Shown piece by piece: positions 19,635 through 58,190 of a stretch of 64,000 bases of DNA. Below the pieces are notes generated by a model, which was not told the DNA's origin, ran no database searches, and saw only the letters and a program-made list of their open reading frames with translations. Numbering within the stretch: position 1 is the stretch's first letter; each line of letters opens with the position of its first letter. The stretch is from the NCBI RefSeq assembly GCF_031877795.1, contig NC_133940.1, positions 13,021,985-13,085,984 on the forward strand, written 5' to 3'. Source of the stretch: Strix aluco. Its lineage: Eukaryota; Chordata; Aves; Strigiformes; Strigidae. Position numbers and translations under genes: made by a program.

Positions 19635-19646
19635 GTTACAAACCTT
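19635..19646 (-). other. IRS4: Splice donor of IRS4 intron 1
   Basis: On the minus strand the sequence reads AAG|GTTTGTAAC, with the exon ending at 19,644. It fits the AG|GT rule with G at +5 but T at +3, so it is moderate in strength. Its value comes from pairing with the acceptor ending at 2,980: the phase-1 join ends the protein cleanly after one Asp codon. Confidence 0.6.
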
Positions 19647-22600
19647 TTCTCGCAGCGTTACACTTCAGACCGTCTGATCTGCTGAAATCTATGCTTACGT
19701 AAGCTCCACTGTCCAAACCTGAAGTACCATTTTGGAGATGGCAAGTTGGCGCTGTAGTACTTGCCTCACAGCTTATAGGGTCATCGCGTAAATTCAGAGC
19801 GATGTAGTTTAAGCCATTCTGAAATCCAGTTGAGGTATCCCTGGACATTTTGCTTTCCTGACCATCAGAAATGTTTTCATCCGGTTTTAACCAAACATTG
19901 TCAAATGAGGCAGAGCTGTGTCTTTTGCTACTATCAGTGAAGAATGAGGAGGACGTCGTCACAGTCCCAGCAGAAGAGAACGTTTCAGAACTGTGTCTCC
20001 TCCTGCCTTGAGGATCAGCTCGAATCACTTTCGGTCCCATAGGAGGTTCAGAGCTAGGAACAGAGAAGCTACTGTTACCAGCGTATCGATCGACAATGCA
20101 CAGTCTATTAACTATGGAAGAAGGGCTATCAATCTTTACTCCATTGTCGGATTCGGTGGCAAATGGCCGAGGTGGTGTTGCTGCCATGTTGAACGTCATC
20201 TCCGTGTAGTCATCAGTCCTGTTACTTGCGGTGCTAACACAAGCAGTACCAAATGAAAGCCTGGCGTAGTCGGGATTTGGTTGGTTTCTAGGAATACTGG
20301 AACTTGCATAAATTGAAATATCCGTTAGAGAGTTAGACAGTTCCTTTGCTGCTTTCGGTGACTGTACATCCAAGTCAACACTCATATAATCAGAAAGCGG
20401 GGACTGTCTGTGGTCGCTACTTGAGCCCAGAGACGACGGCGATCCTTCTGCAGATAAGGAATATGGTGTATTACTCGCCTTTTCATTAAAATCAATATTT
20501 ATGTATTCACCGGGACTCGCTGGCTCAGGTGGAACTGTACGATCATACATTCTTGGGATAGTATTACTCCCTCTTGTACCTAGGGGGAGTCTTGTGGGCC
20601 TAGTAGCCCTGTTCTGCACAAGTCCTTCATCTGAACCTTTCACTGCTGGCAATTTAGAGATGCCGTTAGCCAGAGCCTCACTGTTGACCCCTTTTACATT
20701 TTCTGGTCCACCGTACAAGAGTTTTCCAGGTGAAGACATTGGAACATATTCACTGTGGTCACCATTTTGTCCTGATAACGCCTTAAAGCTTCGGGGCAAA
20801 GAAAAATACGAACTAAAACCTTTGGAAACAGAAGTGGTGTGAATATAATTCGAATCACCGGGGTGCTTTGGAGCGGAATTACCAGGTGACATATCCATAT
20901 ACTCATTGTTTATGATCTTCTCATTACTTCCTTTAGAAATAAATCCAGTTAAAGGACTTCGTACAGGTGAAGAGCTAGCCTTTGGAAACATCATCATATA
21001 TCCTCTGGAGTCAACCTGAGACGGCGACCATGAATTGTTAATCTGTTTCGGAACAGACATACTTTTAGGAGTCATTGGCAAATAATCGCTGTTGCTGGAT
21101 AGAGAAGATGCAACTCCTGGCATCATTGGCATGTACCCATCATCCCTGGCTTTACTCCTACTTTGGTTACATACGGAATCAAGGTTAGTGTCATTGTACT
21201 CCGATTCATGGTTATCTTTTAGTTTTGGTGTTTCAGAGTAAAGAAATCGCCCGTGATTTCCTGCAGCATCTTCATCTAATGAAGCTGTAGTTTGTGTTGT
21301 CTTCTGCTGCACTGCTACAGAAGTTGGTTTTGTTAGAGAGTAAGTTCTTTTCCTGAAACACTTTTCAGCCTCCATATAATCATCTCTTGAGCTATCATCT
21401 GCCTGCTGCTTACTCATGGACATGTACTCACTCAGACAGTTCTCCTCTCTGATGGGTGGTGTGTTTCCCAGGGAATCCGGTGTATTACTCCTCACCCGAA
21501 AGTACCTGAAATCTCCAGGGCTGGAGCCATATTCGTCAGAAGAGATAAATCCCCCATCACTTGGGGAACCACAAACGGATGAGCTAGAAGGCCTGGTCAA
21601 CATGTCCGAAGCAGAGCCATGGCCACTACTGGAAGAAACACTGATGGGACTTGTAGTGGAGGGAAAATGAGAAACGGGCAGCGAAGCAGACCTGGTGTGA
21701 TAGGATGAGCTGAAAGCGGCTCTGACATACCTTCCACTCCCTTCTTGCCGGCCCAAATTCATCCTCGCAGTATTCAGGTGGATTAGACTCCCAGTCACTG
21801 ACCTAAAAGGTCTAGTCATAGTTCCTTCTCCTTCGCTGGATGTTCTGAAGCGATAGGAGTTGCTGCTTTTGGTGGTAGGAGGAGTCCCTCCGGCAATGCT
21901 CTCGGTTCTGGATCTCCGCTGCAAGCCCGTCTGGCTGGGGGGCAGGTTGCCCAAGTGCCTCCTAGTGGTGATGAAGGAGATAGGATTGGTACCGCTACCA
22001 CCACCAGAAGACTGGCTCTTGCTCCGGGGCCTGAACTCTGCAAAGGCCTTTAGAGCTTTCATGGTCTCCAGAAAAGTCTCGTGCATGTTCTGGGCAACCA
22101 CTGAATCATCCACTTGCATCCAGAGCTCTCCAGGCCCAATAGAGGCAGATCTGCCCACTTCGATGAAGAAGAAGTTCTCCGAGTGCCCGCAGCGGCGAAT
22201 ATTCATTAGCTGCAAGTGGACGGAGGGCACCTCTGAGTTCAGCTTGACGAGGTGGATGGCCTTGCTGGAGAGGCACAGCCTATACACTCCAGTCAGGTTT
22301 TTCGTTTGTCCCAACCCTTTGGGCTTAACGTTGACCTGCCACACCTCCTTGAAGACGGTGCCAGGCCTCAGGGCGGCCCCATAGTGCTCGTCATCCTCGT
22401 CCACCTGCTGATCGGCATGGTCCTCCTGCTCCAGGAAGCCCCTCTTGCTCTGGCTCATGAGCTCGCTGATGGCCTGGTACCAGGCCTCCTGCTCGGCCTC
22501 GTTCTCTGCCAGCATGGCGAAGTACTCGTCCTTGGTGTACAGGGCGATGATGTGCTTGTGCTTGGCGTCCGCCCGCCGGCTGACGGTGAAGCACTGGTAG

Positions 22601-23151
22601 AGGGGGATGACCCGCTTGGGCGGGGGGCAGCAGAGCGAGGCCGCCCCGCCGGCCCCCGCCGCCCGCAGGCTGCTCTTGAACTTCTTCTCGCTGTCGTAGT
22701 ACTCCAGCCGGGCGGGGGCCAGGTGGCTCTCGGCCCGCAGCACGAAGTACCGCTTGTGCCCGTGCTTCTGCTTCCGCAGGTAGCCGCACTTCCTCACGTC
22801 CTCCCCGGCGGCGGGCGGGGGGACGCCGCGGCCCGCCGGGGGGGGCTGCCCGCCGCGGCCCGCCGTGGGGACGGCGCGGCCCGCCGCGGGGGCGGCCTCC
22901 GGCGCCGGGCAGAGCGAGGCGCTGGGCGAGCGCCGCAGCAGCAGCAGCAGGTGGTGGGGCTGAGGGGACGGGCAGCGGCCGCCCTCGCCCGCCGCCGGCT
23001 CCCCCTCGCCCGCCGCCGCGCCGGGCACGCCGGGCTCCTGCTGAGGCACGGCTCCGCCTCCCGTGTGGCGGGCGGCCGGCTCCTCCTCGCCGCCCCCGGC
23101 CGCCGCGCCGCCGCCGCCGCCGCCGCCCGGGCCATTCATCCCACTCGCCAT
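19644..23151 (-). CDS. IRS4: Insulin receptor substrate 4, main coding exon (residues 1-1169 plus first base of codon 1170)
   Basis: Docking adaptor at the plasma membrane/cytosol: phosphorylated on tyrosines by insulin/IGF1-family receptors, it recruits SH2 proteins such as PI3K p85 and GRB2. Seen in the sequence: a Gly/Ala/Pro-rich N-terminus (1-118); a PH domain (about 119-235, starting at KCGYLRKQKHGHKRYFVLR); a PTB domain (about 265-373, with the LMNIRRCGHSENFFFIEVGR core); then a long disordered Ser/Tyr-rich tail. YXXM motifs lie at Tyr576, 673, 690, 718, 751, 802 and 982; a GRB2-type YINI at 883; IRS1/2-like YIAL and YVSIDF at 1116 and 1151. The RGYMMMFP, SYFSLPRSFK and LYQCFTVSRRADA blocks point to IRS4 rather than IRS1 or IRS2. 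The ATG is the first in the open frame, with A at -3 and G at +4. Predicted length is 1,170 aa (human IRS4 is about 1,257). Without splicing the frame ends at 19,636, adding Gly-Leu. Confidence 0.97.
23107..23127 (-). repeat. IRS4: GGC trinucleotide run in IRS4 coding sequence
   Basis: Seven consecutive GCC units on the plus strand (GGC on the coding strand), giving most of the N-terminal glycine run at about residues 9-15. Such runs often vary in length between individuals and species. Confidence 0.8.
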
Positions 23152-23154
23152 CTT
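23146..23154 (-). promoter_or_regulatory. IRS4: IRS4 start site in an AAGATGGCG (TISU/YY1-like) context
   Basis: The initiator codon (23,149-23,151) sits inside AAGATGGCG, giving A at -3 and G at +4. This matches the core of the YY1/TISU element that in other genes marks both the start codon and a nearby transcription start. The sequence match is exact for these nine bases; TISU function is inference. Confidence 0.5.
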
Positions 23155-23387
23155 AGGGGCCAGGCAGGGTCCGGAGCGCCGGGGAAGGGGTCCGGGGCGG
23201 GCAGCGGGTATCCGCCCTCACCGGGGAAGCGCCCCCCGCAGCGGGCCGCGCATGGGGGGCGGGCGGTGCCTGGCGGTGCCTGCCTGCGCGCCCTCCCGCC
23301 GCCCCCGTCCGCGCCCTCCCGCCGGCCGCGCCGCGTCCGGCTACTCGCACTCACGCAGGCAGCCTCGGCGGCACCACGGCGAAAACA

Positions 23388-28200: not shown

Positions 28201-30981
28201 CACTGTAAAAGGCAACCTGAAGGCTTTCTTTATCCCCACAAATGCATAGAATCTACCCTGTGTCCAGAGTCCCCTAAACATGCATTTTCCAGGCATGAGC
28301 TACGTGAACTCATTTCTCTCATGCAGGCCTTCCTTCTGTGATAAGATACAGGAACCTTCACAGCATTTATTACGATGCTCACTTATGAAAATGTGTGTAT
28401 TTGAATTTAAGATTTTTAGGCACAAAGATTAAAGGCAGATGTATTAAAGAGTTGTCCAATTTAATTTAGAGGGAACTGTGGGTGCTCAGCACCTCTCTGA
28501 TAATGAAGATCTGGTTGTTTACTTGTTCCATTATACTCCTTTCACCATCTATCTAATCCTATCACATAATTGTCTACAGAAAATACTCAGACGCTTGGTT
28601 TCTTTACTGTTTTGTATAACTGGGGATAGTGTCACCATGCAGTGAAAAGAACCACAGAATGCTGTTTTTCAAAGGCATATGCTCAAATTTGCAAAACGTT
28701 TTCTCACTGGATCAGGAACGAATAATAAGATTATTCTGCCTATTTGTTTTCCTATTTATGGATAGTTGCTGTTTGGGTTATATAGTGATGATAGCTTTGG
28801 GATTATGTGAAATATTACGCAACTACGTTAGTGAAAGAAACATAAATGTGTCCTGCTACAATATACAGGGTTTTGGCCATATGTCCAGATCAGTAAGATA
28901 TGGAAACTACTAAAGCAACCAGACTTATTAACTAATTTCACAGATTGTCTTTGGACAATAGCAGGGTGGAACAGAAATTAAAGATAACCATTTATATAAC
29001 TGGAAATAAAAAGTGGTATAATTAGCGTCAGTTTTCAAGTATTAATGGTGATGAGCTGACAGGACTGTTTTCGTAAAGGAAAAGCATTTTTTTTCCCCAA
29101 ATTTGAGTGCAAATTAACCTTTCCTATTACCTTCTTTGATAGTACATCATATTTACCGAAAAGGTGTTATATATCAATTAGTCAGCATGTCTTTAATTCT
29201 CCGATTTAAAAAAAATATTCGTGGAAGTTAAAGGAAATGCCCTCTAGAGAGTTTAGAAATGAGAAATTGCAGCTTTATGTTGGATGATACAGCTTCTGCA
29301 ATTATTATCTCCATCTTCGCCTTAAGTTAAAAAAAAAATTTTTGCCTTTCAGTTTAATTTTTTGACTTGGGAAGTTGCAAGTAATTTATGTTTTTCTTTC
29401 CTGATGGAGGTTTCTTTATCAGTAAAGGTAGCAAACAGAAGGTTGCAAACCACATTGGTATGTTTGATGTACTTGTTTTCTCTGATCACAGCTTCAGTTT
29501 TAAGTGTGTCAATCCTTGAATACCAGTGGAAGTCAGATTGTTTTTAACCTGAATTTCTCCAGCAATATCTGTCTGAGGGAATAAGTGTGCATATGCTTGT
29601 CTTAACCACAGCCCCACCTAATGAATTGACTATTACTTACGCAGTTTTATGTGGTGTCATTTAGCTTCTATATTTCCTTTTAGTGTCTATTTGACAGAAA
29701 TTGTCCTTTTTTCATTGGTATAAGAGACAAAGAACTCGGTATCTCATCTGTATAGCAAGATACATTGAATTTTTAATCTAGTCATGGCCAATAAAATAAT
29801 TTTCTGAAAATAATTACTGTGGACTCTCCTAACTGTGTCTGAATTCTCATTCTTTGTTATGTAAGGGCATATATTTTAAGTGTTTATGAACAACTGAATT
29901 AGAAAAAAAAATGGAATGCACAGTTGTTAATTGACTAGCTCTTTATTTAGATTTCTTGTACTTTGTGATACAAGACCATGGAGTAGAGTCAGTTTTTGTT
30001 AGAATTGTGGTGTTGTGTAATGGAGCAACAGATGATCACCTGAGCTTAAGAAAAGTATTTATCAGAAGAGAAAAGATCATCTAACTTAAGGGAAAATATT
30101 TTAAAGAAGGAATCCTGGCATATAGAATCCTTTTTCACACAGAAGCTGGTACTCCCACGTGTTGTTTTCTTTTTCAGCTGAGTCTGAGCTTTCTGTTGGA
30201 AAAGTTGGGCTGGTATTTTTGCTGTACGGTATCTTTGACTGACAGTTCAGAAATGCCTCCACTTGTCATTTAGAGGCAGCACAATCCATTTGTGAGGATA
30301 CTAGACCTTCTGTCAGTAAGAAATAATATTGTAACTTCACTATTACTTTTTTTTTTAAACAAATGTGGTCAATTTCCATTTCAGAGTAAGTGCCAGCTTA
30401 GGGTAATGTTTCAGTCTTTTTCAAACAACAAATATCTGTGGTACCTGCAGTAGTCAGTGCATGGAAAAGGCAGGGTGAAAGTGCCTTTGCTCCTTGCTGT
30501 ATGGAGACATTTTTACCCATTTGCAGGAAAGGATGATAGTGGCTTTGCACGTGTTTCTCTTACTTATATACTATTATCTAAATACAGGTAGCCCATGCAA
30601 GATAGTAAAGAGGTAGTTTATGTCTCTTCACTCTATTGAACTGGGAATGATACAGGTTATAGTAAATGACAGTACTCCAAAAAACTTAACATTCTAAACC
30701 ACAAATGCCTACAAAGAATAATTGTGTAGAGCTCTGCAAGAAAGCATAGGGTGAAGCAAAGAACAGAGCCTGGGTTGCAAAGGGGGTGTCTGCACCAGCA
30801 TTTCAGGTTTAAGTGTTCACTTTTGAAGAGGACAGTCTTGGACCATGCAAACTGAATTCCTTTTTGATGAATCTAAACCAAAAGATGCATTCCAGGAGTA
30901 CAGTCATGATGTATCTACATTAGTGTTTTAGTTTGGATTAGAAGTTAACTTTTGAAATTAATTTTAATTTGTCCCTACTCA

Positions 30982-31143
30982 CCTGTTGCAGTCTTGGCGT
31001 GCACATCCTTTCAGATGAAACTAGATCAAAAGCTGTGCTACAGCAGCGTGATGATGGATTGCCTATTCATTGAACCGGCCGACAACTACTGTCAGGCAAA
31101 CTGCAAAATGCGTGTAGAGTGGACATCCAGTTTTCAACACTGA
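30982..31143 (+). other. Unexplained open segment behind an acceptor-like tract
   Basis: A pyrimidine-rich tract ending CACCTGTTGCAG (about 30,991) precedes about 150 bases of open frame rich in Cys and Met (SFQMKLDQKLCYSSVMMDCL, then FIEPADNYCQANCKMRVEW) ending in TGA. On the minus strand the same place reads CAACAG|GTGAGTAG, a near-perfect donor. I recognise no family. It could be a fragment of a retroposed UTR, a conserved noncoding element or chance. Confidence 0.2.
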
Positions 31144-31381
31144 CTTTTTGCCCTTCAGATGTGCTCTGCTGTTCTGTATTTCTTGCTAATGCAGACATAC
31201 CTGTAATGCACTCTAGCCACTAATGAACAGCCAATCTACAGGACCAAATTAAAGTCAGTATAAAGTAAAACCCTGGAAATGCATGTGGTGTGGACTTTGT
31301 GTCCTCAGCACTGTATCTTCACGTGTTGTGGGCCAAGGCCGAGCCCATCAGAGACGGTTGTAGTCCCTCTGTAGTAAGTCA

Positions 31382-32060
31382 GTCCGGATGTGTAAAAAAG
31401 TCAGCATACATTTCCAACAGTGATCTTCTTTCCAGGATAAAAGTTGGAAGAACCACCTTTATTATATTCATTCCTAGTCTAACTTGTGACAATAGATGCA
31501 TGATACACTTTCACGTTCTTCCTCCTTCCCCATCATCATCTTGATCAGCCGGGGGACCAAAGAGATCAGCATTGTCCCCTTAGACATGGACGAACTGAGG
31601 GACTCTGTGGTATCCGGACATTTCAGTACTTGCTGTGGTGCTGCAAGTCAGGACTGCGGCAGACCCTGAAGAGTCCGTACATCGCTTTGGGGAAGAACTG
31701 CTCTGACAGAACTCATCAGCATCGTAGAACTCATCCTCAGTGCTTGAGTAAAAAATCTGGGACTGTGTTTGGAGAAAGATTGACATGGCTCGGAGAAGTG
31801 AGACTGCAGCTAGCTGCTGATTGCCCACTTCTTGTACTGTTTGGTGTCACAGTCGGATTTCCAAGCGATGCCACTATAGGTCCCACTGGCAAAGACAAGG
31901 GTTGCTGCTCTGACTTGCACAACTGAGTGTGTTCTGGAGGTATAACCCACCTGGGAAGGCATTGTGCTGCTCACCGACTGTTCAAAGGACTGGGCTGATT
32001 TTGACGCCTGAACAGGGACATGAGGGGTGGATTGTGTGTAAATTGTCCATTTTTGTCGGC
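31382..32060 (-). pseudogene. OSBPL9P: Processed OSBPL9-like (oxysterol-binding protein-related 9) cDNA fragment
   Basis: Intact OSBPL9 encodes a lipid-transfer protein with PH and oxysterol-binding domains. The minus strand carries, in order and without introns, blocks that I recognise as the linker and start of the ligand domain: [107 protein letters not shown] and [19 protein letters not shown], ending at THPD (31,382). Several frameshifts and a stop before the HLLSQV block break it, so it is dead. The length corresponds to about 225 residues from the middle of the protein. The CR1 fragment immediately upstream has the same orientation. Paralogues OSBPL10/11 are less likely by these blocks. 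Confidence 0.8.
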
Positions 32061-32074
32061 ATTATGATGTTATT

Positions 32075-33560
32075 TTGATTTTGTTAGCTCAAATTTCCTC
32101 CAGAGCCCCTGGCTCATCTCTGTAAGTCTTCAAGTGTGCTCCAGTGTACCCAGCAAGTCTCAGAGCAACAGGCTGGGGGCCCTCACTAGCACCCCATCCC
32201 TCTAACCTTGGAGTGTGGTCCCTTGGTTTGTCATGGGCGAGCCTGATATTATCCCCTTAAAGTTCTGTCAGTGACCCACACTAGCTCGTGAGCAAAGACC
32301 CTCTTCCCCCTTTTGGAAAGCTGAATCCCATCTGATGCCAGCAGGCCTGGTGCCGTGTAGACCATTCCATTATCAGAAACCCATAAATTGTGGTGGTGAC
32401 ACCAGTCATGGAGCTGTGTATTAATAGGCGTGGTCTGTCTGTTTCTTCCAATATTGCTGCCCAAAACTGGAAGGATAGAGGAAAAAATTGCCTGTGCTCC
32501 AGATTCCCTTACCAACTGTCCCAAGGCCCTGAAGTCTCTTTTGATTGCCCTTGGACTACGTGTTGCGACTTCATTGCCACCCACATGGAAGAGCAGTAAT
32601 GGGTAGTAGTCCAAGGGCTGTACCGGACTAGGAGGTTCCCTAGTGATGTCCTTAACCTGGGCCCCAGCGAGGCTGCAGGCTACCCTAAGAGGAGGGTCTG
32701 TCCAGCACATTGGGCCCTCTGTTCCCCTCAGAAGGGAGTCACCTACAACCATAACCCATCTCTTCTTCCTCGTGGAGGTGGTTGTGATACAGGGATAGGC
32801 CCTTCCGACCTTGGCGACTCCTCTGGTGGAGATGGACTGTCACCAGCGTCATCTGTTGACTGGGCTTCCGCACCCAGAGCCTCAGACCTGTTGTACAGAG
32901 GCACCTGGAAAGGCAAGATGGGCAAGGAGGAGGTTCGCCTGCCGCCCTAGGCCTGGACTTGCCACCATTCACTCCTTTCCTTTAAGCTCCTGCCTTCTGC
33001 CTGGCAGGGGAGGATACAGGGTCCGCTTGATCTTGGGTTACTTCTGGTGGCTGTTCTGCCTCGGGGAGGGCAGAGCAAGGTTCCGCCACTCTGTCTCTTT
33101 CTCACACTCCCTGATGCCCCTTAACCTTCCTCCTGCCTCTCGTAGCTCTGCCACCAGGCTGAGCAGATCACCCGCTTGGTCACAGCTCGCACGGCTGTTC
33201 TCCTGCGGTCGTCGCGTACCAGGGACGGGCTCGGGCACGCGCTGCAGCCTGAGGCCCGGACGGCTGCGTGTGTTTGTGGAGCTGGCTCTGGGCTGCCACA
33301 TCCATGCTGGTGAGTGCAGAGGACGTGGCTTTCTGCCGGCGCATCCCACAGCAAAGCTCCTGCTGGGAGGGTGATGACCACCGACTGAACTGGACTCTTG
33401 ACCTGGTAGGGTGGCGACACCCTTCCCGCCCAAAGTGCCGCCAAGCTCCGTGCAGGGGGTGGGGGGGGCGCGGTTGCCCTGGCAACGCCCAGGCCCCGTA
33501 GGCTTCTCTTTCGAGAGCGGCCCCGCTGCGGGCCCTGCGGGATGCGGGGCTGTAAACTTT
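32075..33560 (-). mobile_element. CR1 LINE, 5' portion with ORF1 (truncated, frameshifted)
   Basis: The minus strand contains a GC-rich 5' region and a broken CR1 ORF1: a coiled-coil-like stretch DLLSLVAELREAGGRLRGIR (about 33,180-33,120), a linker with VPLYNRSEALGAEAQSTDD (about 32,905-32,850), then the esterase-like part. At least two frameshifts separate these blocks. About 170 bases after the ORF1 stop (32,249) the CR1-like sequence gives way to OSBPL9-like cDNA; no ORF2 or CR1 3' end follows. Most CR1 copies are 5'-truncated, so one keeping the 5' part and lacking the 3' part is unusual. The outer 5' boundary is approximate. Confidence 0.75.
32249..32752 (-). pseudogene. CR1 ORF1 esterase (SGNH-hydrolase-like) domain, inactive
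   Basis: 167 open codons starting within the block-I motif VVGDSLLRGTEGP (nucleophile Ser at residue 6 of this segment). Then come the typical CR1 blocks YYPLLLFHVGGNEVA (block III; usual GTND is GGNE here, residues 58-61), IKRDFRALGQLVRESGAQ, IFSSILPVLG, and ASDGIQLSKRGKRVFAHEL. In active CR1 esterases the last block reads DGxHL; here the catalytic His is Gln (residue 144). Upstream ORF1 is in another frame. The role of this domain in CR1 retrotransposition is not well established. Confidence 0.75.
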
Positions 33561-36500
33561 AGGTAATTCACAGCTCAAGTTGCTCTATGTACGGTGGATA
33601 TAGCTTCTATATATCAGATATGTAATTATCTTAAATGTCTAGCGGGACAATACAGGCATTTTTAGAAAACACAGATGCTAAATACGCTGTTGTACTGCTT
33701 AAAGTCATTAGCAGTGGGTGGTTGCTTTTTTGTTAATATAAACTACGTTAGTTTTGTTTAACTATTGCAAAGTGAAGCAATGTTGAGTGGAAAATAATGC
33801 TGGTGCTGGTCACAAAGTTGGTGCTTTTGAACTCCTTGACACGTTTCAAAAGGTAAGATGAGATGGAGTATTTGCTTATAGGCCCAAGTATGGGCTGAAA
33901 CGTAGCCTTACCAGTTCAGAAGGAGCTCAGAAAGAAATGATGACTCAGAGACAGTCCTCTGAATCACACTTCCCCTGAGCTGTAGCATTGCACAAGCGAG
34001 GAGTAAGCTGTCAGCACTTTGCCAGCTGAAGCATATTCCCTTGCTCATGTCCAGCCAGCTCTCTCTGCTGACACAGAAGGGAGCAAAGTGACGACTGTGT
34101 TTACTTCTGACCCAATTTCCCCCAACTTCTCCACTTGCTCATGGAAGGAAATAATGTCTCTTCGAGGTCTGCTCATTAATCTAGTGCCCTTAGCATAGCT
34201 TTCAGGAAGGAAGGCGTGATGACACAGTAGAATGCAAGAATACCTTACGTCTTCCATACAGAGCTTTATGACCATCAGATGCCTGGTGTATTATGTTTTA
34301 CTGCTCATTCATAGGTAGGTGGGACACTGTACTCGTCAGGTCTGAAACTAATGCTTGTTCCTTGGGCACTCACTTTTCATCCTATAGGAAGCAAATCTGT
34401 CGCAGTGAGAGAATGTATCAGCAACAGATACATGGCTTGCAAAGTACTGTCTGAGTCTGATTCCAGGCAGATTTGGCAAGACCAATAATCACCAAGTTAA
34501 ATACGATTAAACAAATCTGAGTTCTTGGTAATTATCTTTAAAAAAATGAGTTGTACTCACATGCAAACCAACAAAAATAAATATTTCCTGTGTGTTAAAT
34601 TTAAGAATTTAAGAATAGCATAAGCAAATAATCAACTGATGAGCTAATTAAGCTCTGCAATGACTTTTAACAAATTCAGTCAGCAGATTTTACAGATGAA
34701 CAGTGATTTACCTGTAAATAATTGAGATTAAAGTATTCATTTGTTAGTATTAGATCAGCTAGCAATGCAAAGGTCCATTGTTCTTAATGGTTAAAAAGGT
34801 TAATGATTCTGGTAACCTACTAGGAATCAAGCATTTAAAATTCCTAATTTGTGTGAAGCCTGACAGTGAATATATTTATTTTCTTTCCTGGTTTATGAAT
34901 GAGGAAAATCTAAAGTAGATAGGATAGCATATGTTGAAATTAGTCATTTCAGTGTTAAGACATCTATACTTTGATAGTGAAATTTTAAGAAAATTTTACC
35001 TGAACCATGTACTTAAGGGACAAATTATGCACCTATCAGTACAGGAGGAAATGCATGAGGAAATATCAATTTGTTGAGTTTAGCCTGTAGGACTGCTTGA
35101 GTAAGTAGCTGCTCACCAACACAAATATAGATTGTGCAATCTAATTTTAAGTAAGTGACTTGGAATTCCATTCTGTATGATCTTTACACCTACGTTTGTT
35201 CTTTAGAAAGAGTTTTCACAGATTCACAAGTAGTTTTCACAACAACTAAACATTTTTACAAAACAAAATCGTTTATAATAAAGCCAGGAAAAACCTTACG
35301 CTTCAATAAATTGAAACAGCAGGAGATTGTCATTGAGTATTTGCTGTCTCCTGATATTCAATTGTCAGGGCTGTTCTGTTATTCTTGGTAATCTTTTATG
35401 CTTGCCAAGCTTTACTTTCCATCACTTTGCAAAAAAAATGAAGAATAGACTGAGTAATAAATGATCATAATTATAAAAATTGTGATGTGCCTGTGTTTTT
35501 TAGGAACCTTACAGTCACTCTGAAAGATACACCCTTATGGTGTAAATGGTAAAACTGATAAACCTGGTCTAGGCTGTCTCTATGACTGGCATACCGTGCG
35601 GCCAGTGAACAAGTGTTAGTCTGCTTCCATGGTATTATTCACCGTTTTATGGAGTTCTGAGAAGCTGTGTTACCTATAGTGCCTTTTTAGGTAATAGTGA
35701 CATCATTTATACGATTTGTTTTATATTGTACTTATTTTTAATACATCACTATAGATTAACTCAACATTTCTTGATACTGATGCATCTTGGTGAATCGGGT
35801 AATTTTCCTCCACATCCATGGCTTGATATGAGTGAGAGTAGGGGAGAGGAAAGAGTGTGTGTAAATGTGTTATATCAGTGCAAAATCAATCACTTAATGC
35901 CTTTCAGGGCTTCCCTTACTACAGCTTTCAGTAGTAGAGTATTCTGTTACTTAGTACTGTTGGCAGTTCAGTGTTATTTCTGTGTACAATATGCAGCATA
36001 ATGACCTTTACTACAATATGAAGAATAAATAATAATACAGGGGCAATGGGTCTCTAAATTATATTTCATACTAGATTAGAACAGGCTTACCTCTCTTTTT
36101 TCATAAAGGCATTTGATACATTTTGAAATAAAGTACTTCTTCATTTTTTTGAATAAAAACTTCTCCAAAATTTCCATCCTAAAACTCCCAAAGATAAAAT
36201 GTACAAGGTATGCCTTTGTATCACTCCATTTCATAGCAATGTATTTCTCATCTCCAGACAGTTCATAAAGGAATAGTGTTCAGAAGATTTCAAAATCTTG
36301 CCTAACATTCTGCTCTTGCTTCTTAAATCAGATTCTGAAGTGTTCATGTTCCAAATCTCAGTTATTTTTGAATCCTGCAAAGTGAACATGACATTGGATG
36401 CTGATCCCTTCAACATTAAAGCCATGTATGATGTAATGAAACTGTATTTCATACAGTCTTACAAATGAATTGTGTCCCAAATAAGTTTATAGAATTAATT

Positions 36501-55944: not shown

Positions 55945-58190
55945 TCTGGCTGGTGGGGAGTGTGAAGCTCAAGGGCAGCGTTGGCTGTAGTGACTATGAA
56001 ATGGAGTTCAAGATCCTTAGGGCAGCGAGGAGGATGCACAGCAAGCTCACTGCCCTGGACTTCAGGAGAGCAGACTTTGGCCTCTTCGGGGATCTGCTTG
56101 GCAGAGGACCATGGGATAAAGACCTGGAGGGAAGAGGGGCCTAAGAAAGCTGATTAATATTCAAGGATCACCTCTGCCAAGCTCAGGAGTGATGCAGCCC
56201 AACAAAGAGGAAGTCAGGTAAGAACGCCAGGAGGCCTGCATGGATGAACAAGGAGCAGCTGGACAAGCTCAAACACAAAAAGGAAGTTTACAGAGGGTGG
56301 AAGAAAGAGTGGGTAGCCTGGGAGGAATACAGAGAAACTGACCAAGCAGCCAGCAATCAGGTTAGGAAGGTCAAAGCCCTGATAGAATTCAGTCTAGCCA
56401 GGAACATCAATGGCAACAAGAACAGCTTCTATAGGTACGTCGGTGATAAAAAGAAGACTAGGGAAAATGTGGGCCCTCTCCAAAAGAAATGGGACACCTG
56501 ATTACCTGGGTCATGGAGAAGGCTGAGGTCTCAGTGACTTTTCTGCCTCAGTCTTCACCAGCAAGGGCTCCAACCACATCACCCAAGTTGCAGAAGGCAA
56601 AGGCAGGGACTGGGAGAAGGAAGAACTGCCCACTGTAGAAGGTGATCAGTTTTGAGACCATCTAAGGAACTGGAAGGTGCACAAGTCCATGGGACCTGAT
56701 GAGATGCATCTACGGGTCCTGAGGGAACTGGCAGATGAAGTGGCTAAGCTGCTATCCATCGTATTTGAGAAGTCATGGCAGTCCGGTGAGTTCCCGTGGA
56801 ATGGAAAAGGGGAAACATAACCCCCATTTTTAAAAAGGAAAAAAGAAGACCCGGAGAACTACAGGCCAGTCAGTCTCACCTCTGTGCCTGGCAAGGTCAT
56901 GGAGCGGATCCTCCTGGAAACCATGCTAGGGCCCATGGAAAATAAGGAGATGATTGGTGGCAGCCAGTGTGGCTTCACTAAAGGCAAATCCTGCCTGATG
57001 AATGGATAAGGGTGGATAAGGGAAGCGCAACTGATGTCATCTACCTGGACTTGTGCAAAGCATTTCTGACACTGTCCCGCACGACATCCTTGTCTCTAAA
57101 TTGGAGAGATTTGACGAATGGACCACTCAGTGGATAAGGAATTGGCTGGATGGTCGTACTCAAAGAGCTGCGGTCAATGGCTCGATGTCCAAGTGGAGAA
57201 CAGTGACGAGTGCCGTTCCTCAGGGGTTGGTGTTGGGACCGGTGCTGTTTAACACTTTTCTTGGTGACATGGACAGTGGGATCGAGGCACCCTCAGCAAG
57301 TTCACCAATGACACCAAGCTGTGTGGTGCGGTCACACGCTGGAGGGAAGGGATGTGCCATCCAGAGGGACCTGGACAGGCTGGAGAGGGGGGACCATGCA
57401 AACCTCATGAAGTTCAACAAGGCCAAGGGCAAGGTCCTGCCCATGGGTCAGGGCAATCCCAAGCACAAATCCAGGCTGGGCAAGGAGTGGATTGAGAGCA
57501 GCCCAGTGGAGAAGGACTTGGGGGTATTGGTGGATGGAAAACTGACTGTGAGCCAGCAATGTGCACTCACAGCCCAGAAAGCCAACCGTGTCCTGGGCTA
57601 CATCAAGAGCAGTGTGGCCAGCAGGTTGAGGGAGGGGATTCTTCCCCTCTACTCTGCTCTCATGAAACCCCCCCCTGCAGTTCTGTGTCCAGCTCTGGGG
57701 CCCCCAACATCAGAAGGACATGGACCTTCTCAAGTGGGTCCAGAGGAGGCCACAAAGATGATCGGGGCTGGAGCACCTCCCCTGTGAGGACAGGCTGAGA
57801 GAGTTGGGGCTGTTCAGCCTGGAGAAGAGAAGGCTCTGGGGAGACCTTGTAGCAGCCCTCCAGTACTTAAAGGGGCTACAGGAAAGGTGGGGAGGGACTC
57901 TTGATCGGGGGGTGTAGGGATAGGACAAGGGGTGATGGTTTTAAACTGAAAGTAGATTCAGATTAGATACAAGGAAGAAACTCTTCCCTGTGAGGGTGGT
58001 GAGACACTGGCACAGGTTGCCCAGAGAAGCTGTGCCTGCCCCCTCCCTGGCAGTGTTCAAGACCAGTTTGGACGGGGCTCTGATCAGCCTGGTCTAGTGG
58101 ATGGTGTCCGTGCCCATGGCAGGGTGGGGGGGAACTAGACAGTCTTTTAGGTCCCTTCCAACCCAAACCATTGTATTATTCTATGATCTC
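55945..58190 (+). mobile_element. CR1 LINE, 5'-truncated, with decayed ORF2 and intact-looking 3' end
   Basis: It begins inside the C-terminal part of the ORF2 endonuclease (LKGSVGCSDYEMEFKIL) and continues through the linker ([20 protein letters not shown], then [18 protein letters not shown]), the reverse transcriptase ([35 protein letters not shown]) and the C-terminal region ([38 protein letters not shown]). It ends with ATTCTATG at 58,178-58,185, the CR1 3' hallmark. The frame is broken by several stops, frameshifts and small deletions. Plus-strand insertion, independent of the minus-strand CR1 at 32-33.6 kb. Confidence 0.92.
55948..58110 (+). pseudogene. CR1 ORF2 endonuclease-reverse transcriptase remnant, inactive
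   Basis: Active CR1 ORF2 nicks DNA with an APE-type endonuclease and copies RNA with its reverse transcriptase. Here two catalytic motifs are lost in addition to the frameshifts: the endonuclease SDH is SDY (55,989-55,997), and the RT catalytic FADD is FTND (57,301-57,312). A small deletion around 57,000 removes part of the RT between the GFTKGKSC block and the next conserved segment. The longest remaining frame (57,053-57,787) covers RT motifs and the thumb region (MQ...SDTVPHDILVS to LRE...LPLYSAL). Confidence 0.88.

What the first reader, a model, noticed from the sequence alone, without database searches (positions are those of the whole stretch)
31382..33560. CR1 5' end joined to OSBPL9 cDNA: candidate chimeric retrotransposition
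A CR1 5' segment with ORF1 (minus strand) runs, within about 15 bases, into an intronless OSBPL9-like fragment in the same orientation, and no CR1 ORF2 or 3' end follows. Processed pseudogenes are rare in birds because CR1 reverse transcriptase is thought to prefer its own 3' end. If the junction is single and precise, template switching between an OSBPL9 mRNA and a CR1 RNA during first-strand synthesis would explain it: OSBPL9 copied first (3'), CR1 5' part last. This is analogous to U6-L1 chimeras in mammals. Two independent insertions remain possible.
Basis: partly seen in the sequence, partly recalled or inferred. Interest (0 to 1): 0.75.

Follow-up and report, generated by a model that had tools for sequence, protein, structure and literature searches.

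The report
Four-piece retrotransposon and mRNA patchwork
In what looks like a bird genome, an old insertion turns out to be stitched together from part of a jumping gene, two scraps of a virus-like repeat and a spliced copy of the gene OSBPL9, most likely made while a broken chromosome was being repaired with reverse-transcribed fragments.

Summary
CR1 5'UTR+ORF1 and an intronless OSBPL9 fragment are really there, but they do not meet at one precise junction. Against the window's own genome the stretch is at least a four-piece mosaic (minus strand): CR1 (about 33550-32082), a 67-70-nt piece X of an ERV-like repeat (32083-32014), six joined OSBPL9 exon sequences (about 32016-31381), and a 47-nt piece Y of the same repeat family (31377-31331). 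OSBPL9 starts 11 nt inside one exon and stops 10 nt before the end of another, without poly(A); CR1 has no ORF2 or 3' end. Two of three internal junctions share 2-4 nt. X and Y appear antisense to CR1 and OSBPL9. No tested target-site duplication exceeds chance. This fits capture of several reverse-transcribed fragments at a double-strand break (sequential RMDR, known from mouse) better than one CR1 template switch. OSBPL9 differs from its parent by 11%, so the event is old. Later, 1.32 kb of the CR1 half was exchanged with a CR1 copy 0.99 Mb away (14 differences in 1,321 nt; the 41 other listed matches are 72-82% identical). No empty site was available: the mechanism is inferred.

The parts
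33402..33550 (-). CR1 5'UTR, GC about 74%, CpG-rich; outer end set by a GC step, similarity shown only to 33515
   Evidence: 77% to L011 at 33515-33456, 80% at 33439-33380
32082..33401 (-). CR1 ORF1 and ORF1-ORF2 spacer; 3 frameshifts and 1 stop in ORF1 against a recalled consensus; tract shared with L009 (14 of 1,321 positions differ)
32014..32083 (-). Piece X: 67-70 nt of an ERV-like repeat, antisense to the repeat's putative direction; shares CA or CAA with the CR1 end
31381..32016 (-). OSBPL9 retrocopy fragment, six exon sequences joined; starts 11 nt inside exon A, stops 10 nt before the end of exon F; 5 frameshifts and 1 stop against recalled human ORP9
31331..31377 (-). Piece Y: 42-47 nt of the same ERV-like repeat family, same polarity as X

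Best explanation
The stretch is an old mosaic insertion made in a germline cell or early embryo when a double-strand break was closed with several pieces: a reverse-transcribed fragment of spliced OSBPL9 mRNA, the 5' part of a CR1, and two scraps of an ERV-like repeat, partly joined through overlaps of 2-4 nt (sequential RT-product-mediated DSB repair, s-RMDR). Shown: the four pieces, their order, the internal junction sequences, the joined exons, truncation of OSBPL9 at both ends, absence of poly(A), of a CR1 3' end and of LTR ends. Inferred: the break, the capture, and that all pieces came in one event. Much later the CR1 half exchanged 1.32 kb with the CR1 copy L009, 0.99 Mb away, by gene conversion; the direction window to L009 is a weak inference from the GC/CpG gradient.
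For: Six exons without introns; both OSBPL9 ends inside exons, not at splice sites; X|OSBPL9 share CCCT, CR1|X share CAA with L009 or CA with the other copies; two further repeat pieces at the junctions; X lies on the strand opposite to an LTR-end plus primer-binding-site-like motif in 6 of the 6 repeat loci that carry it (6 of 13 loci; motif recalled), so mixed polarity; no duplication above chance with the ends tested. Ono et al. 2015 (PMC4516963; abstract and passages seen) report each of these features in mouse: spliced mRNA pieces, several truncated retrotransposons at one break, 1-5 bp microhomologies, no poly(A), no LTRs, mostly no TSD; the passages do not show all of them in one allele. 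Conversion: 14 differences and no gap in 1,321 nt to L009 against 72-82% identity in 41 other listed matches.
Against: The empty site is unknown, so the break and a one-step origin are not shown. The OSBPL9|Y junction has no clear microhomology and about 3 unexplained nt. Overlaps of 2-4 nt are common by chance and were not tested against chance. X and Y come from one repeat family, and in 2 of 13 repeat loci (L025, L029) a Y lies about 1.1 kb downstream of an X, so an older repeat copy at the site cannot be excluded. Old decay could hide a duplication. The repeat's direction rests on a recalled motif.
Confidence: 0.55

Rival explanations
1. CR1 reverse transcriptase made the whole insert at a nick, jumping between templates at least three times (repeat RNA, OSBPL9 mRNA, repeat RNA, CR1 RNA).
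For: CR1 and OSBPL9 in the same sense, CR1 5' part last, short overlaps at two junctions; multi-template LINE chimeras exist (PMC2104539, passages); [quoted passage not shown]
Against: The 3' end is not a CR1 3' end; X and Y would have to be antisense repeat RNA; no duplication above chance with the ends tested; the 5'UTR shared by L011 and L012 reaches further upstream than the window's.
Confidence: 0.2
2. LTR-retrotransposon-mediated capture: OSBPL9 mRNA was recombined into an ERV-like element (X-OSBPL9-Y); the CR1 neighbour is a separate event.
For: Repeat sequence on both sides of an mRNA fragment truncated at both ends.
Against: The mRNA lies antisense to the putative element direction; four repeat loci compared with the whole window found only X and Y of the element; CR1 lost its 3' part exactly at X, which independent insertion does not explain.
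Confidence: 0.12
3. Separate insertions (CR1, ERV-like repeat, OSBPL9 retrocopy) later trimmed by deletions until they touched.
For: Two of 13 repeat loci carry X and a downstream Y about 1.1 kb apart, so OSBPL9 could have replaced sequence between them.
Against: Needs several deletions ending at piece borders; no further CR1 match in 29000-36000 with six fetched CR1 loci and no further repeat piece with four of 13 repeat loci.
Confidence: 0.1
4. Retrocopy of one spliced chimeric transcript in which repeats had become exons of OSBPL9.
For: All pieces lie close together and OSBPL9 is spliced.
Against: Junctions are not at splice sites; no X, Y or CR1-segment match in C8:7530500-7589900 around the gene at E 0.01 (a gene extending beyond that stretch was not read).
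Confidence: 0.03

Closest known systems
Sequential RT-product-mediated DSB repair (s-RMDR), Ono et al. 2015, PMC4516963 (abstract and passages seen)
   Same: Spliced mRNA fragment cut at both ends, several truncated retrotransposon pieces, short overlaps at junctions, no poly(A), no LTR, no evident duplication
   Different: Natural and old, in a bird-like genome, with CR1 instead of mouse retrotransposons; break site not known; one junction without clear microhomology
Multi-template LINE chimeras (U6-L1; tripartite WEIRD/Mg-SINE/MGL; B2/U6/L1), PMC2104539 and PMC4476161 (passages seen)
   Same: Copies of different transcripts directly fused, a LINE among them
   Different: There the LINE 3' part forms the 3' end and direct repeats flank the insert; here the LINE 5' part is at the 5' end and the 3' end is a scrap of another repeat
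LTR-mediated retroposition (mechanism recalled; search listing only)
   Same: mRNA fragment between LTR-retrotransposon-like sequence
   Different: Opposite polarity, no LTRs, CR1 attached
Gene conversion between dispersed repeats (recalled)
   Same: Near-identical tract inside two otherwise diverged copies, in register, ending where homology ends
   Different: Ordinary; seen here between two CR1 copies 0.99 Mb apart

Membership tests
s-RMDR (Ono et al. 2015) | captured mRNA fragment without introns | tested here: met
   six exons joined
s-RMDR (Ono et al. 2015) | fragment cut at both ends, no poly(A) | tested here: met
   starts 11 nt inside exon A, ends 10 nt before exon F end; a few nt later repeat Y begins
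s-RMDR (Ono et al. 2015) | several retrotransposon pieces at one site | tested here: met
   CR1, X and Y; that X and Y belong to a retrotransposon rests on a recalled motif
s-RMDR (Ono et al. 2015) | 1-5 nt microhomology at junctions | tested here: inconclusive
   2 of 3 internal junctions (CA/CAA, CCCT), third none clear, outer two unknown; chance level not computed
s-RMDR (Ono et al. 2015) | insertion at a double-strand break, no integrase or TPRT duplication | tested here: inconclusive
   best candidate duplications are not above random pairs; no empty site available
CR1 target-primed insertion or template-switch chimera | 3' end is a CR1 3' end | tested here: not met
   3' end is repeat Y, then other sequence; no ORF2 or 3' part nearby
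CR1 target-primed insertion or template-switch chimera | direct repeats around the insert | tested here: inconclusive
LTR-mediated retroposition | mRNA in the element's sense direction | tested here: not met
   X opposite to the PBS-like direction in 6 of 6 repeat loci with the motif (6 of 13); PBS consensus recalled
LTR-mediated retroposition | LTR or other element parts on both outer sides | tested here: not met
   only X and Y found in the window with four repeat loci as queries
ordinary processed pseudogene | mRNA 3' end with poly(A) | tested here: not met
   stops inside an internal exon
gene conversion with L009 | near-identical tract inside diverged copies, in register, with diverged ends | tested here: met
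   14 of 1,321 differ at 33401-32081; 7 of 28 differ at 33429-33402; beyond 32081 different sequence

The most novel reading that the evidence does not exclude
Break repair with reverse-transcribed scraps is a natural germline route by which birds gain intronless gene pieces, bypassing the CR1 need for its own 3' end; this locus is an old four-piece example, and the inserted CR1 half later served as donor that overwrote another CR1 copy 0.99 Mb away by gene conversion.
Probability: 0.4. Interest if true: 0.65.

Novelty: new member of a known kind. Interest (0 to 1): 0.5.

Why it matters
Birds have few retrocopies (78 in chicken against 4,738 in human in one survey; PMC3136929, passages), and this is put down to CR1. 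A mosaic with spliced mRNA but no CR1 3' end points to another entry route, repair with reverse-transcribed scraps, which can be tested genome-wide: look for intronless fragments cut at both ends and joined to truncated retrotransposon pieces. The recent CR1-CR1 tract also warns that one half of a composite can look young while the other is old, which would mislead dating.

Tried and rejected
Single-junction template switch: rejected because a repeat piece intervenes. Exonised repeats in one spliced transcript: rejected by junction positions. A recent origin suggested by 98% identity to L009: rejected because OSBPL9 differs from its parent at 74 of 645 aligned positions and carries 5 frameshifts and 1 stop against the human protein as recalled. 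Two by-eye duplications (33570/31381 and 33564/31324): no better than random pairs (61% and 76% of random pairs score as high). Before the genome answered I tried to extend CR1 and OSBPL9 across the junction with recalled proteins. The OSBPL9 extension was not above controls (34 of 60 random windows as good; 7 of 60 shuffles upstream and 54 of 60 downstream; 110 to 151 of 200). The ORF2 leader beat 59 of 60 random windows, but at an implausible place; my guess that CR1 ran into ORF2 codons at 32070-32042 had 46 to 187 of 200 shuffles as good and is contradicted. Scans of viral contigs, genome contigs, phages and plasmids found no relatives. Rfam: nothing at gathering scores in the window; three matches far below their gathering scores in 30900-33700. 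Separate searches of the outer flanks and of the repeat's copy number did not complete, so further small pieces outside 31331-33550 are not excluded.

Full report
What was checked. The window lies in a 1.41-Gb genome held as G000 at C10:13021985-13085984; I take it for a bird from gene and CR1 content, not from a record. On the minus strand CR1 ORF1 is present at 33184-32258 (recalled consensus, an independent match of its esterase part to the ORF1-encoded protein 4c1b, E 1.8e-12, the next matches being chance at E 0.14 or worse). The OSBPL9 part is supported independently of recall by the oxysterol-binding domain (Pfam PF01237, E 5.6e-5 but below the curated cutoff; PDB 8p7a, E 4.3e-7) and by the gene itself: six exons at G000:C8:7540081-7547034 match window 32017-31381 head to tail. 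In the gene the exons are bounded by AG and GT and, joined, read in frame as STINPVDAVYQPS...HPDLFV.

The junction is not simple. Of 42 listed genomic matches to the CR1 part other than the window itself (40 of 1,049 candidate places were scored, so a lower bound), none passes query position 1480 and 24 end at 1479-1480, that is at window 32082-32081. In the five fetched diverged copies (L010-L014) and in L009 the sequence runs on into the CR1 spacer and ORF2. In the window a different sequence follows, X, of 67-70 nt, which 22 of the 43 rows share (40 of 100 candidates scored); 13 of these 22 were fetched. OSBPL9 begins at about 32016, 11 nt inside exon A. After OSBPL9, which stops at CGGACT, 10 nt before the end of exon F, comes Y (31377-31331), 42-47 nt shared by 11 rows and found in 11 of the 13 X loci, one of them weakly. 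X and Y are thus pieces of one dispersed repeat family.

What the repeat is. In 6 of 13 loci the repeat carries a motif that looks like an LTR end followed by a lysine-tRNA primer-binding site (recalled), and in all 6 that motif lies on the strand opposite to X as X stands next to OSBPL9. I therefore call the repeat ERV-like, with X and Y antisense to OSBPL9 and CR1. Long frames in three larger loci were listed but not scanned for gag or RT domains. On the X strand, Y lies 227-252 nt before X in 10 of the 11 loci that have it; in L025 (only there) and in L029 (in addition) a Y lies about 1.1 kb behind X, so the order X-Y is not by itself proof of shuffling.

Junction letters. CR1|X share CAA if L009 stands for the CR1, CA with the other copies; X|OSBPL9 share CCCT; at OSBPL9|Y about three letters have no source. 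No splice donor or acceptor lies at either OSBPL9 end. The best candidate duplications around the insert, with two choices of the 3' end, score no better than random pairs of flanks.

Ages. OSBPL9 versus parent: 74 mismatches in 645 aligned positions plus 32 gap columns, a few border positions included; with 70 of 639 up to CGGACT the corrected distance is 0.118, which at a recalled rate of about 2e-9 per site and year, mostly on the pseudogene side, means tens of millions of years. The last 76 nt (exon F) have 1 mismatch against 69 of 563 elsewhere (Fisher p 0.0015, picked after the fact). Against recalled proteins CR1 ORF1 has 3 frameshifts and 1 stop in 306 aligned codons, OSBPL9 5 and 1 in 202; the difference is not significant (p 0.21).

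A later exchange. One CR1 copy, L009 (G000:C10:12061409-12062757, 0.99 Mb away), is 98.4% identical over 1,349 nt without a gap. The differences are not even: 7 lie in the first 28 nt (33429-33402) and 14 in the other 1,321, while the 41 other listed matches are 72-82% identical. With no gap between them, both share the frameshifts; the window's one stop codon falls on a later, window-side difference (32948). L009 goes on into ORF2 where the window has X. A tract exchanged in register between two old CR1 copies explains this. In the window the high GC and CpG content continues into the 5'UTR outside the tract; in L009 only 27 nt of CR1 lie outside on that side, with GC 56%, so a window-to-L009 direction is a weak inference; polarised differences (7 window, 4 L009, 3 unclear, judged by six other copies) do not decide it.

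Mechanism. The anatomy (spliced mRNA fragment cut at both ends, three truncated repeat pieces, mixed polarity, short overlaps, no poly(A), no CR1 3' end, no LTR) matches sequential RT-product-mediated DSB repair as described for mouse zygotes (PMC4516963; abstract and passages), feature by feature though not shown there in one allele. LINE template-switch chimeras differ in having the LINE 3' part at the 3' end and flanking direct repeats (PMC2104539, passages). Template switching by bird CR1 has been proposed for a SINE (PMC5729268, passages) and is hinted at by a U6 copy in turkey (PMC4476161, passages). My nine paper searches (listings and starts of abstracts only) showed no report of such a mosaic with CR1 or with OSBPL9; subscription papers, among them Suh 2015 on CR1 and retrogenes (seen only as a reference), were not available.

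Verdict. The finding is real and more complex than described. The multi-piece structure is shown; the break-repair route is the best-supported reading but remains inference without an empty site.

Noticed in passing
window 33401-32081 and L009 (G000:C10:12061409-12062757): Gene-conversion-like tract of 1.32 kb between two CR1 copies 0.99 Mb apart on one contig, 14 differences and no gap.
   Followed up: yes
window 31458-31381: The last OSBPL9 exon piece is almost identical to the parent exon (1 mismatch in 76) while the other exons differ by about 12%; chance, or a second small exchange.
   Followed up: partly
window 19636-23217, minus strand: Long single open frame of an insulin receptor substrate family protein (PDB IRS1 1qqg, E 1.1e-85) with a GC-rich stretch at 22-25 kb (67, 78 and 58% GC); by recall it resembles IRS4. 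The mosaic lies about 8-10 kb upstream.
   Followed up: partly
window 55950-58187, plus strand: Another CR1 copy with decayed ORF2 and a 3' part.
   Followed up: no
window 33402-33550: The CR1 5'UTR here has GC 74% and CpG o/e 0.69 against 50-59% and 0-0.35 in five other aligned copies; possibly long unmethylated or shaped by GC-biased conversion.
   Followed up: partly
L025, L029, L032: The ERV-like repeat occurs with direct repeats about 1.4 kb apart (L032: 1.1 kb at 87%), suggesting tandem or nested units.
   Followed up: no
G000:C6:11497269-11497345: A 78% match to the last OSBPL9 exon piece, perhaps the matching exon of a paralogous ORP gene.
   Followed up: no
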